A DNA stretch of 64,000 nucleotides from an uncultured Planctomycetota bacterium (GTDB lineage Bacteria; Planctomycetota; Brocadiia; CAIUPP01), in NCBI GenBank assembly GCA_903901045.1, contig CAIUPP010000021.1:1-64000 (forward strand). The letters run 5' to 3'. The notes under the pieces were generated by a model. The model did no database searches. It was given only the letters and a program-made list of their open reading frames with translations, and was not told the origin of the DNA. Of the stretch, positions 5,270 through 18,578 are shown piece after piece. The number at the start of each line of letters is the position of its first letter. Position 1 is the stretch's first letter. Made by a program: the position numbers and the translations under genes.

Positions 5270-5971
5270 TTATGACGCTGCGGACGTCAGAATAATCCGC
5301 GCGGCCTCGCGCAGGCCAACCGCTTCGAAATCGGCGGGTGTTTCGCCGTCGGCGTTGCGGCCGATGCGAATCGTGCGGCATCCGGCGGCCCGGCCCGCGC
5401 CGATGTCGCAATCGCGGTCTCCCACCATCCAGGAGCGCGCGAGGTCGAGGGCATGGTCCTCCGCCGCGCGCAGGAGCATCCCCGGCTCCGGCTTTCGGCA
5501 GCCGCAGGCGATGGCATATTGCGGCAGCGTCCCCGCCGCGTAATGCGGGCAATAGTACACCGCCGTCAGCATGATGCCGCGCGCGCCAAACCAGCTCACC
5601 ATGCAGTCATGGAAGGCGCGCAGCGACGCCTCATCGAACTTGCCGCGCGCGACGCCGGACTGGTTGGTGATGACGATAATGCGGTAGCCCGCCTTCTGGA
5701 GCAGGCGCAGTCCCTGCAGAGCGCCGGGGAGCGGCTTGAGGCGCGCGGGGTCCACGGAGAACTCGGTATCCACGATCATCGTGCCATCGCGGTCGAGGAA
5801 GACGGCCTTGCCCAGGGGCTCTCGCCCCGCGCGCGCCGTCGTTGTAGGGGCAAGGCATGCCTTGCCCGGAGACTTTCGCTCAGCGCGCGCCCTTGTTGTA
5901 GGGGCGCAGCATGCTGCGCCCTTGCGTTTGAGCCTGGGCGCGCGGTGTTTGTTGCGACCTGGCTCAGGCAA
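5270..5971 (-). CDS. gmhB: D-glycero-D-manno-heptose 1,7-bisphosphate 7-phosphatase with a repeat-derived N-terminus
   Basis: A HAD-superfamily phosphatase that removes the 7-phosphate in ADP-heptose synthesis for LPS. Motif I is FLDRDGT (Asp60, Asp62), followed by the TNQSGVARG loop, the zinc-binding set CPHYAAG...CGCRKPEPGM and the distal MVGDRDCD acidic motif. The catalytic part starts near residue 55, yet the only usable start is a TTG at 5969-5971 overlapping the gmhA stop by eight bases. Residues 1-54 have no counterpart in typical GmhB (E. coli 191 residues, here 233). They are largely encoded by two palindromic repeats: KGAACCAPT at residues 17-25 and PGKACLAPT at 35-43. No other ATG/GTG/TTG is evident between the repeats and motif I, so the extension is probably translated. 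Confidence 0.9.
   Translation of the reverse strand: MPEPGRNKHRAPRLKRKGAACCAPTTRARAERKSPGKACLAPTTTARAGREPLGKAVFLDRDGTMIVDTEFSVDPARLKPLPGALQGLRLLQKAGYRIIVITNQSGVARGKFDEASLRAFHDCMVSWFGARGIMLTAVYYCPHYAAGTLPQYAIACGCRKPEPGMLLRAAEDHALDLARSWMVGDRDCDIGAGRAAGCRTIRIGRNADGETPADFEAVGLREAARIILTSAAS
5843..5869 (-). repeat. GCATGC palindromic element inside gmhB (copy A)
   Basis: This 27-base element, core CAAGGCATGCCTTG, is read as codons 35-43 of gmhB and gives PGKACLAPT. The same variant occurs between genes at 8262-8290 and 18477-18501. The outer edges (GTAGGGG/CCCCTAC type) are partly eroded on one side here. Confidence 0.85.
5897..5923 (-). repeat. GCATGC palindromic element inside gmhB (copy B)
   Basis: This 27-base element, core CGCAGCATGCTGCG, is read as codons 17-25 of gmhB and gives KGAACCAPT. 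All 27 bases are identical to 10033-10059 inside lpxK, where the element is read in the same frame. A non-coding copy of this variant is at 14420-14444. Confidence 0.85.
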
Positions 5972-8206: not shown

Positions 8207-8578
8207 TTGTCGCTCCTTAACCAAACCGACGGCGTTCCCATGGGGACGCCGCGCTTTTCCGCAGGGGCAAGGCATGCCTTGCCCCTACAACGGCTTTCGG
8301 GCATGCCGCGCCGGTCGTACGACGACCGCGGACTTGATAGTCCGCGCTACACGCGTCGGCACGGGCTTTAGCCTGCGGCCCCGAGCGCGCCGAGGGGATA
8401 GTCCGCGCCACACAACCATGTAGCGCGGGTTATCAAACCCGCGATATTGTGCGTTCTTTCCGTTTTCAGGGCGCAGCATCCCGCGCCGGTCGTACAACGA
8501 CCGCGGACTTGATAGTCCGCGCTACACGCGCCTGAACGGGCTTTAGACGGCGCAATTTGGACGGGCTTTAGCCCATCC
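8207..8578. repeat. Intergenic cluster of palindromic and direct repeats
   Basis: No gene here. The region contains a GCATGC palindrome (8262-8290), two 50-base direct copies at 8306-8355 and 8481-8530 differing at one base (each with CGGTCGT/ACGACCG and GCGGACTTGATAGTCCGC palindromes), a GCGGGTTATCAAACCCGC palindrome at 8424-8442 and GGGCTTTAGCC repeats near 8366 and 8562. The last overlaps the stop codon of the acyltransferase gene. The region looks like an accretion site for several REP-like families. Confidence 0.7.
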
Positions 8579-9502
8579 CTACATACGGCCCGTCGCCGCT
8601 TTCACATTCGGTACGCGCCAGCGGCGATGCATCCAGAGCCATTGCTCCGGGCAATTGCAGATGAACTTTTCCAGCCGGCGCGAAATCTCCTCGGTCACGC
8701 GGCGCACGTCCTCGTCGCGGTCGGAGCCGGGGATGACGTAGAGCGGCTCATCCAGGAACATCTCGAATCGGTACGTCCCTTCGACCCGGCAGGCGCCGCC
8801 CATGAGGATCGGCGCGCCGGTGCGCAGCGCCAGCAGCGCCGGCGCGGGGGTGGTGCTGGCGGGCCGTCCAAAGAACGGCACCCAGACGCCGTCCCCCTTG
8901 GCGTATTGATCCACCACCAGCGCAATATAGCCGTTCGCCCGGAGGGTGCGCAAGAGGGTCGGGAATGCGCCGACGCGCGGAATGATGCGCTGGCCCAGCA
9001 GGACGCGGCGGCGGCGCAGTTCGCCGTCCATCAGCGGGTTGTGCACCGGGCGGTAGACGCTGATGGGGTCCACCCCGTATTGCCTCAAGACCATGCCGAG
9101 GATCTCCCAGACCCCCAGGTGCGCGGTGACGCAGATGGCCCCCTTGCCGGCGGCGATGACCTCACGCAGGGGACGGTCGTCGCGGATGGTGACGTGGCGC
9201 GCGACGGTGGAGGGCCGGATCATCCGATGCGCCATGGCGACTTCGACGAGGGAGCGGCCGAAATGCTCGTAGACGCGCCGGGTCATCTGCGCGGCCTGCG
9301 CGGGAGTCATTTCGGGGAAGGCGGCCATGAGGTTCTCCGTGGCGGTCCTCACCTGGCCGGGGGTCCAGCGCATCACCTGCCGTCCGCCCCACTCCCCCAG
9401 CCGCAGCGCCGCCGGAAGCGGCAGCGCCTGAGCCAGGAAGAGGAACGCTTTGGTGGCCAGGTATTCGGGAAGATATTCCGGATGTGGGCGGCGTTTCCTC
9501 AC
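8579..9502 (-). CDS. Lipid A lauroyl-type acyltransferase (LpxL/HtrB family)
   Basis: A 307-residue membrane-associated acyltransferase expected to add a secondary fatty acid to lipid A. The catalytic H(x4)E is seen in TAHLGVWEILG, followed by YRPVHNPLMD, VVDQYAKGDGVWVPFFGRPA and the C-terminal PEQWLWMHRRWR, all typical of the LpxL/LpxM family. I place the start at the GTG at 9500-9502, which overlaps the lpxK stop as GTGA; longer reading would run inside lpxK. The stop TAG at 8579-8581 lies within the edge of a GGGCTTTAGCC-type palindromic repeat, so the repeat has set the C-terminus (ends GRM). Confidence 0.88.
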   Translation of the reverse strand: MRKRRPHPEYLPEYLATKAFLFLAQALPLPAALRLGEWGGRQVMRWTPGQVRTATENLMAAFPEMTPAQAAQMTRRVYEHFGRSLVEVAMAHRMIRPSTVARHVTIRDDRPLREVIAAGKGAICVTAHLGVWEILGMVLRQYGVDPISVYRPVHNPLMDGELRRRRVLLGQRIIPRVGAFPTLLRTLRANGYIALVVDQYAKGDGVWVPFFGRPASTTPAPALLALRTGAPILMGGACRVEGTYRFEMFLDEPLYVIPGSDRDEDVRRVTEEISRRLEKFICNCPEQWLWMHRRWRVPNVKAATGRM

Positions 9503-10806
9503 GCGACTGCCCCTTTCAGCATGGCGTCCAGCGTCTCCTCGCCGGAGAGTATGGCCATTTCGACGCGGAGGAATCTGGTTCGATTGAGCAGGGCGGCGGC
9601 GCGGGGGGAGAGGGATGGTGCGGGGTCGTTGAAGGAGCCCTGGCCGGGTGCTGCACTCGGCCTCGGTTGATCGGAAGATGATGTGGCACAGCCGCCCTCG
9701 CCTGTGCGTGAACAGCCGAGGGCGGCTGTTCCACACTTCAAAAGCCCTGCCTTCATGAACGCCACCAGCTTGACGGCGTCCTTCTCGGTCGTCACCGCCC
9801 ACTCGGCGCCGGAGTTCTCCAGGAGCGCCGCGAGCCGGTCCAGGTCGGGCGCGCTGTAGTGGAAATGGTCCGGTAGGGATTGCGACGCGACCACCTCCGC
9901 CTTGAGCCGCCGAACGGTTTCCAGAAATCCCTGCGGGTTGCCGATGCCGCAGAAGAGCATCACGCGCTTGCCGGCGAGGGCGTTGAGGGAATCGGCGTGC
10001 TTGAGCGCGCCGCCACACGTCTTGTCCCCGACTGTAGGGGCGCAGCATGCTGCGCCCTTAGAACCATGAGCGGCTTCCTCGGCGCGCAACTCCAAGAGCG
10101 TGGTCGCGCGGTGCGCCGCTGTGATAATGGGAATATTGGGGGCCAGCGCCGCGATTTCGGCGCGGCGCTCGGCGAGCGTGGCGGCGTCCAGCAAATCCGT
10201 GCGAGTGAGGATGATGGCATCCGCCCGGCGCAGGGCGGAAAGCGGCTCGCGCAGGTCGCCGGCGGGTATGATGCGGCGTCCGAGCAATGGCTTCAGCGCA
10301 TCCACAAGCACGAGGTCGAGGTTCCGGCGGGCGCGCAGGTGCTGGAATCCGTCATCGAGGACGAGGCAGTCCGCTCCTTCGGCGAGGGCGCGACTCGCCG
10401 AGGCGACGCGGTTCGGATCGGCGTAGTGGGGAATGCCGGGGAGCCGGCGCTCGAAAAGCAGCGCCTCGTCATTCCTGGGGCGGCCCTGCGCCCGCTCGTG
10501 CGCGCCGTAGCCGCGGCTGAGGATGGCGGGATGCCGCCCCATCTGCGCGAGGCGGCGGACGACCCACTCGACCATCGGGGTCTTGCCGGTGCCGCCCGCG
10601 CTGAGGTTGCCGACGCTGATGACGGGCACGGCCAGGTCGCGGCTGGGAAGAATCCCTTTGCGATACGCCGCGCGCCGGAGCCGCATGGCCGCGCCGTACG
10701 CGAGGCCGAACGGGCTGAGGGCGCAGCGCAGCCACCGGGCGCCCGCGCAGCGGGTGTCCTCCCTCAGGAACCGAACGCAACAGCCGCGGGAGTCATGGGA
10801 TAGCAT
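9499..10806 (-). CDS. lpxK: Tetraacyldisaccharide 4'-kinase with two repeat-derived insertions
   Basis: LpxK phosphorylates the 4' position of the lipid A disaccharide at the inner membrane. Seen: N-terminal hydrophobic region, SVGNLSAGGTGKTP (P-loop, residues 71-76), SRGYG, LDDGFQH, FCGIGNP, DHFHY and VTTEKDAVKL. The protein is 435 residues against about 330 in E. coli. The excess falls in two places: residues about 248-272 (containing KGAACCAPT, from the palindrome at 10033-10059) and residues about 352-395 (from the palindrome at 9682-9735 plus flank). The reading frame stays open through both, so the gene is probably functional. The N-terminal start (ATG 10804-10806) lacks a clear Shine-Dalgarno and is uncertain. 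Confidence 0.92.
   Translation of the reverse strand: MLSHDSRGCCVRFLREDTRCAGARWLRCALSPFGLAYGAAMRLRRAAYRKGILPSRDLAVPVISVGNLSAGGTGKTPMVEWVVRRLAQMGRHPAILSRGYGAHERAQGRPRNDEALLFERRLPGIPHYADPNRVASASRALAEGADCLVLDDGFQHLRARRNLDLVLVDALKPLLGRRIIPAGDLREPLSALRRADAIILTRTDLLDAATLAERRAEIAALAPNIPIITAAHRATTLLELRAEEAAHGSKGAACCAPTVGDKTCGGALKHADSLNALAGKRVMLFCGIGNPQGFLETVRRLKAEVVASQSLPDHFHYSAPDLDRLAALLENSGAEWAVTTEKDAVKLVAFMKAGLLKCGTAALGCSRTGEGGCATSSSDQPRPSAAPGQGSFNDPAPSLSPRAAALLNRTRFLRVEMAILSGEETLDAMLKGAVA
9682..9735 (-). repeat. Second palindrome type inside lpxK
   Basis: Arms 9682-9700 (TGTGGCACAGCCGCCCTCG) and 9717-9735 pair over 19 bases with one mismatch. The element belongs to a different family from the GCATGC repeats. 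It is translated in lpxK near residues 357-375 (CGTAALGCSRTGEGGCAT), between the conserved TTEKDAVKL and RTRFLRVEM segments. Confidence 0.75.
10033..10059 (-). repeat. GCATGC palindromic element inside lpxK
   Basis: All 27 bases match 5897-5923 of gmhB. It is read in the same frame, giving KGAACCAPT at about residues 250-258 of LpxK, between LLELRAEEAA and LAGKRVMLFCG. Confidence 0.85.
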
Positions 10807-14217: not shown

Positions 14218-14486
14218 GTCTGACCGGGGCGCGCGCCTTGGAGTGCGGCGGCATCGACGCCGCTTTGGCTTGGCGGGAGGGCATGCGCGGAGGAGGGGGC
14301 AGCCCGCCTGTGCTGCCATTCCTCGCGCGAGGCAAAGCGCCGCCAGGGGCGGCGCAGTCCAAAGGTCCCGGTTTCCCTCCTAGCACCGGGCGGGTAGAAT
14401 GGGACTCGGCGTATCCCGGGTAGGGGCGCAGCATGCTGCGCCCTGGCGTTCCCTGGCCTGACGCACTCTCTTAACTTGAGGCGGAA
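14218..14486. repeat. Intergenic repeats, including a GCATGC palindrome at 14420-14444
   Basis: The GCATGC element at 14420-14444 (core CGCAGCATGCTGCG) is the non-coding relative of the copies in gmhB and lpxK. Upstream, near 14237-14366, a TTGGAGTGCGGCGGC segment faces an imperfect complement GGCGGCGCAGTCCAAAG, and a GCGCCGCC/GGCGGCGC hairpin lies between. No gene is seen. Confidence 0.6.
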
Positions 14487-18476: not shown

Positions 18477-18578
18477 GGGGCAAGGCATGCCTTGCCCCTA
18501 CGATGGCTCGCGGGCTAAAGCCCGCGCTACACAGACGGCAAGCGTGCGACGAGTCGCGGGCTGAAGCCCGCGCTACAT
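18477..18578. repeat. Three palindromic repeats between nrdD and the glutaredoxin gene
   Basis: 18477-18501 is a GCATGC element (core CAAGGCATGCCTTG). 18510-18525 (CGGGCTAAAGCCCG) and 18555-18573 (CGCGGGCTGAAGCCCGCG) belong to the GGGCTAAAGCCC family, which also occurs near 8366 and 8562. They split an otherwise tight nrd operon and could lower expression of the downstream genes. Confidence 0.65.

What the first reader, a model, noticed from the sequence alone, without database searches (positions are those of the whole stretch)
10033..10059. The same repeat in the same frame inside lpxK
All 27 bases equal copy B in gmhB, and the encoded KGAACCAPT is the same. Of three reading frames on either strand, the same one is used in all three coding copies. 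That suggests selection for a frame that has no stop codon and gives a tolerated peptide.
Basis: seen in the sequence. Interest (0 to 1): 0.85.

Follow-up and report, generated by a model that had tools for sequence, protein, structure and literature searches.

The report
Mobile palindrome lodged inside lpxK
A 24-base palindromic repeat, present about 100 times in this bacterium and normally found between genes, has lodged in reading frame in a floppy loop of the lipid A kinase LpxK and in about two dozen other genes; this is a new example of a known kind of genome parasite, and it does not always use the same reading frame.

Summary
Window 10033-10059 equals the gmhB copy base for base and encodes KGAACCAPT in lpxK. 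The repeat is a GTAG-tagged REP: GTAG plus a perfect 20-bp palindrome, with sharp ends and no conserved flanks. There are 94 exact 23-mer copies, plus 87 of a sister family with another core. I placed 182 copies with a home-made gene finder: 143 are intergenic, 10 overlap gene ends and 29 lie in genes (83% of this DNA is coding, so genes are strongly avoided). Twenty-six copies in 22 genes have good coding signal on both sides, including ligA, murD, mnmA, ileS and mutY. The claim of one shared frame fails: four of the five open frames are used (10, 8, 5, 3). By palindrome core, two frames are used equally (13:13) and the third, containing ATG, never (0 of 26; p about 0.003, post hoc). LpxK is the only one of 110 homologues with a REP insertion here (+27 residues) and has a second REP insertion near its C-terminus. 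An AlphaFold model (pLDDT 85) matches Aquifex LpxK, and its two lowest internal stretches are these inserts. Intragenic GTAG REPs are already published, so this is a new family of a known kind.

The parts
10034..10057 (+). REP family A, GTAGGGGCGCAGCATGCTGCGCCC, inside lpxK; read on the - strand as (K)GAACCAP(T), LpxK residues 250-258
9499..10806 (-). lpxK, tetraacyldisaccharide 4'-kinase, 435 aa, uninterrupted; only match in this genome
   Evidence: PF02606 E 5.6e-80; one match in own genome; fold match to Aquifex LpxK
10009..10086 (-). approximate extent of insert 1 in LpxK (about 26-27 aa, residues ~241-266) absent from relatives
   Evidence: alignment of 110 LpxK; pLDDT < 50 at 251-261 and 263-265
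9683..9734 (.). second REP insertion in lpxK: inverted dimer of family E (GTGGCACAGCCGCCCTCG...)
9616..9753 (-). approximate extent of insert 2 in LpxK near the C-terminus, disordered in the model (362-389)
5898..5921 (+). REP A copy in the open frame at the N-terminus of gmhB (KGAACCAPT)
5844..5867 (+). REP family B copy (GTAGGGGCAAGGCATGCCTTGCCC), same frame (GKACLAPT), N-terminus of gmhB
5270..5971 (-). gmhB-like HAD phosphatase ORF; only in-frame common start before the catalytic FLDRDGT motif is TTG at 5971
14420..14443 (+). REP A copy, intergenic
8265..8288 (-). REP B copy, intergenic
18478..18501 (-). REP B copy, intergenic

Best explanation
The repeat is a GTAG-tagged REP element, a tiny non-autonomous mobile palindrome that normally sits between genes. 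A copy inserted into lpxK and was kept because the net insertion preserved the frame and fell in a flexible surface loop between two strands, so the kinase should still work. Across the genome, copies persist inside genes only where they are stop-free and tolerated; insertions elsewhere in genes were removed by selection. Shown: sequence, copy number, sharp ends, depletion from genes, open frames, absence of the insert in relatives, low model confidence (a sign of disorder) at the insert. Inferred: movement by a RAYT-type (HUH tyrosine) transposase, retained LpxK function, and purifying selection as the filter. The same reading frame in the window is coincidence plus the fact that two of three core frames are usable.
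For: 94 exact 23-mer copies with zero in the reversed-pattern control. Flank consensus falls away at both ends of the 24-mer. The 24-mer folds as GTAG plus an 8-bp stem and CATG loop (-10.4 kcal/mol, z -3.9). 29 of 182 A+B copies lie in genes against 151 expected from 83% coding density (P about 3e-87), with 26 in 22 genes having coding signal on both sides. Frame counts are 10/8/5/3/0/0. LpxK has 43 residues where 92 of the 110 aligned sequences have 16-17. ligA, mnmA and murD have about +35, +12 and +41 residues against the same-family relative. The AlphaFold model has pLDDT 85.1 and pTM 0.85, with internal stretches below 50 only at 251-265 and 362-389, the two REP inserts; the best fold matches are Aquifex LpxK, TM up to 0.84 by target length. 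All 30 invariant columns of the LpxK alignment are kept. Two transposases score as REP-associated tyrosine transposases (NF047646, above cut-off).
Against: No RAYT gene flanked by family A or B was found; the two RAYTs sit beside family C REPs, and the genome is 94% complete. No relative is close enough to show an exact empty site at base level. The LpxK insert is about 26 aa while the REP codes for 8-9, so extra sequence came with it or accrued later. Low pLDDT in an insert with no aligned homologue is partly expected. Gene calls come from my own script, not a published caller.
Confidence: 0.87

Rival explanations
1. One frame is actively selected: the peptide KGAACCAPT or KACLAPT itself is useful or uniquely tolerated.
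For: All three coding copies in the window use it; it also holds 8 of 26 copies in one orientation, and 13 of 26 counting both orientations of the palindrome.
Confidence: 0.04
2. The REP is a functional RNA or DNA signal (mRNA hairpin, gyrase or IHF site, translational pause) kept in lpxK for regulation.
For: The lpxK mRNA forms the hairpin (87-nt fold z -2.4); REPs elsewhere have reported RNA and gyrase roles (PMC3733652).
Against: The insert is absent from all other LpxK examined, positions in genes are unrelated, and copies avoid genes; no element-specific conservation could be tested.
Confidence: 0.06
3. Assembly artefact: short repeats joined unrelated reads inside lpxK.
For: The genome is a 154-contig assembly and the element is repeated.
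Against: A wrong join at the REP would not leave LpxK sequence in frame on both sides; the contig is 216 kb with a coherent lipid A and heptose cluster; the same pattern recurs in 22 genes.
Confidence: 0.02

Closest known systems
GTAG-tagged REPs, including intragenic ones (Opitutus terrae and others; PMC3733652)
   Same: Terminal GTAG, short perfect palindrome, high copy, mostly intergenic, supplies TAG stops to neighbouring genes, several families per genome, some copies in frame inside DNA ligase, tRNA synthetase and pseudouridine synthase genes; two insertions in one gene are reported there too.
   Different: I did not match the core to any of the paper's 24 families (the sequences are in a figure that is not held). 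lpxK is not among the genes named in the text I read. Frame use by palindrome core was not reported in that text.
Rickettsia palindromic elements (RPE; reviewed in PMC10969869, also discussed in PMC3733652)
   Same: Palindromic repeats inserted in frame in unrelated housekeeping genes, giving a shared peptide.
   Different: RPE-1 type elements are longer (about 150 bp) and enter genes more often; related short RPEs carry CGTC, not GTAG. Here 16% of A/B copies are in genes.
REPIN/RAYT systems of Pseudomonas (PMC3116915) and TnpA-REP of E. coli and Stenotrophomonas (PMC8266576)
   Same: GTAG plus hairpin as expected substrate; REP-associated tyrosine transposase genes are present in this genome.
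   Different: Family A rarely forms REPIN pairs (one A-A pair with GTAG outermost) and no A/B-flanked RAYT was found.

Membership tests
GTAG REP | GTAG at one end of a short palindrome | tested here: met
   GTAG then GGGCGCAGCATGCTGCGCCC; no symmetric CTAC end in 98 home copies
GTAG REP | many dispersed copies, mostly intergenic | tested here: met
   94 exact A and 87 B; 143 of 182 intergenic
GTAG REP | TAG of the element serves as stop codon of flanking genes | tested here: met
   7 of the 10 overlaps with gene ends are 3' ends in the same orientation
GTAG REP | RAYT gene in the genome | tested here: met
   two proteins above the NF047646 cut-off
GTAG REP / REPtron | RAYT flanked by the same REP family | tested here: not met
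   RAYTs flanked by family C hairpins, none by A or B; assembly 94% complete. This lowers a REPtron claim for A/B, not the REP claim
REPIN | two inverted REPs with a short spacer as the mobile unit | tested here: not met
   one A-A and two B-B pairs with GTAG outermost; commoner in family C, 20
GTAG REP | single-strand cleavage by the cognate transposase | not testable with these tools
   biochemical property
Rickettsia palindromic element | CGTC-tagged or ~150-bp palindrome of Rickettsia | tested here: not met
   24-nt GTAG element in a different bacterium

The most novel reading that the evidence does not exclude
The A/B families, stop-free in five of six frames, therefore survive in genes far more readily than family C (odds ratio 10.7), making REPs a natural in-frame insertion mutagenesis of essential genes.
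Probability: 0.35. Interest if true: 0.5.

Novelty: new member of a known kind. Interest (0 to 1): 0.35.

Why it matters
It adds an essential lipid A gene, and murD, mnmA and mutY among others, to the short list of genes carrying in-frame REPs. It also gives a set of 26 natural insertions in which frame use can be counted. The count shows that the impression of a single frame was a small-sample effect, and leaves a testable weaker bias.

Tried and rejected
My first pattern was typed wrongly and found nothing. Rfam has no match. I looked for a copy of the 139-bp repeat lacking the REP, to read exact insertion ends; none was found. Copies of the palindrome in other genomes of the phylum gave almost no intragenic cases: one (G068, L337) had a positive but weak score on both sides. 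The frame model trained on the home genome was used there, so that test is weak. The viral contig scan gave 23 hits, not followed up. A second Rickettsia element paper (PMC186582) is not held.

Full report
Observation. The 27 bases at 10033-10059 are identical to 5897-5923, and the reverse strand of each reads KGAACCAPT. The host gene at 9499-10806 (-) is lpxK (PF02606, E 5.6e-80), the only match in its genome, lying among the lipid A and heptose genes of the window (gene names there are by my reading of the translations apart from the Pfam-tested lpxK and gmhB). The copy at 14420 is intergenic. The copies at 5844 and 5898 are both in the N-terminal extension of gmhB, whose only in-frame common start before the catalytic motif is a TTG overlapping the gmhA stop.

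The element. The pattern GTAGGGGCGCAGCATGCTGCGCC occurs 94 times exactly and 119 times with at most one mismatch in the 4.77 Mb genome, with none for the reversed control. Aligning all exact copies, conservation drops at both ends of GTAGGGGCGCAGCATGCTGCGCCC; only weak preferences for T just outside remain. The palindrome is 20 bp, preceded by an unpaired GTAG, and folds as an 8-bp stem with a CATG loop. A sister family differs in the core (GTAGGGGCAAGGCATGCCTTGCCC, 87 exact copies), and further GTAG or GTGG palindrome families are present. This is the anatomy of GTAG REPs (PMC3733652).

Where it sits. I trained a dicodon gene finder on the fetched DNA. Of 182 distinct A and B copies, 143 are intergenic, 10 overlap a gene end and 29 lie within genes, although 83% of the DNA is coding (expected 151; P about 3e-87). 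Seven of the ten overlaps are 3' ends in the same orientation as the element, where its TAG can end the gene, as described for GTAG REPs (PMC3733652). Twenty-six copies in 22 genes have good coding scores on both sides. Named hosts include ligA (two copies), mnmA, ileS, mutY, a RluA-family pseudouridine synthase (two copies) and mevalonate diphosphate decarboxylase, and murD (Pfam Mur ligase domains with a MurD-like N-terminal domain).

Frames. In the 26 copies the four used frames hold 10, 8, 5 and 3. The fifth open frame is empty, and so is the sixth, which contains TAG. Because the core is a palindrome, the frames pair up: core frame X (AACCA or KACLAP) has 13, Y (AQHAAP or ARHALP) 13, and Z (with ATG at its centre) 0. 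With openness of each frame measured on the intergenic copies, the chance that Z is empty is 0.003 to 0.009, and the overall fit to equal use gives p 0.01 to 0.03. This test was formed after seeing the data, and four genes hold two copies each (by gene, 0.8^22 = 0.007). Family C, open in four of six frames by my reading, has only 2 of 130 copies well inside genes, against 26 of 182 for A and B (Fisher p 4e-5); part of that difference may be the age of the families, which I did not test.

LpxK. Among 110 aligned LpxK, the window protein alone is long at the REP site: 43 residues where 92 of the 110 have 16 or 17, the next longest being 35. A second insert near the C-terminus holds an inverted dimer of another REP family at 9683-9734. 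The AlphaFold model from 65 sequences has pLDDT 85.1 and pTM 0.85; apart from the first four residues, stretches below 50 are 251-265 and 362-389, the two inserts. The model matches Aquifex LpxK (4ehy, TM 0.84 by target length), and all invariant columns of the alignment, including the P-loop and the DD motif, are present. Retained activity is inferred, not shown. Comparable in-frame inserts absent from relatives are seen in ligA, mnmA and murD.

Mobility. Two Y1 transposases pass the NCBI cut-off for REP-associated tyrosine transposases, but both lie next to family C hairpins. No such gene next to A or B was found in this 94% complete genome. That a RAYT moves A and B is an inference from known systems (PMC8266576). 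The same 23-mer occurs in 5 of 392 genomes of the phylum (home included), and once more in a genome of the same class, elsewhere mostly as a full 28-bp palindrome with CTAC at the other end, a form absent from family A at home.

Known or new. In-frame REPs inside genes, two in one gene, and even the same classes of host gene are published for other bacteria (PMC3733652), and Rickettsia elements are the older parallel (PMC10969869). This is a new family and a new host gene of a known kind.

Noticed in passing
L075 9720-9860 region; also L067, L079, L087, L105, L108, L109, L110, L115, L122, L126: A 138-139-bp MITE-like repeat with imperfect terminal inverted repeats (CTAGAGC...GCTCTAG) carries a REP A copy inside it; about 11 copies, 8 complete, none without the REP found.
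   Followed up: partly
window 9683-9734: Second REP insertion in lpxK: inverted dimer of another family (GTGGCACAGCCGCCCTCG...), also in frame.
   Followed up: partly
L074 9198-10379 (-): A RluA-family pseudouridine synthase holds a duplicated stretch (DEGKSAHAERKGKACLAPT / DEGKSVHTERRGAACCAPT) whose two units carry different REP cores, B then A, as if cores can be exchanged.
   Followed up: no
L131 and L137 (contigs C7 5598-5873, C139 4198-4428): Two REP-associated tyrosine transposase genes beside GTAG/GTGG CGCGGG...CCCGCG hairpins: candidate REPtrons for family C.
   Followed up: partly
L333-L338 (G068) and L339-L347: The same palindrome in distant genomes of the phylum, mostly as a symmetric 28-mer; one copy (L337) may be intragenic.
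   Followed up: partly
L257-L279: 23 stretches of contigs filed as viral carry the exact 23-mer.
   Followed up: no
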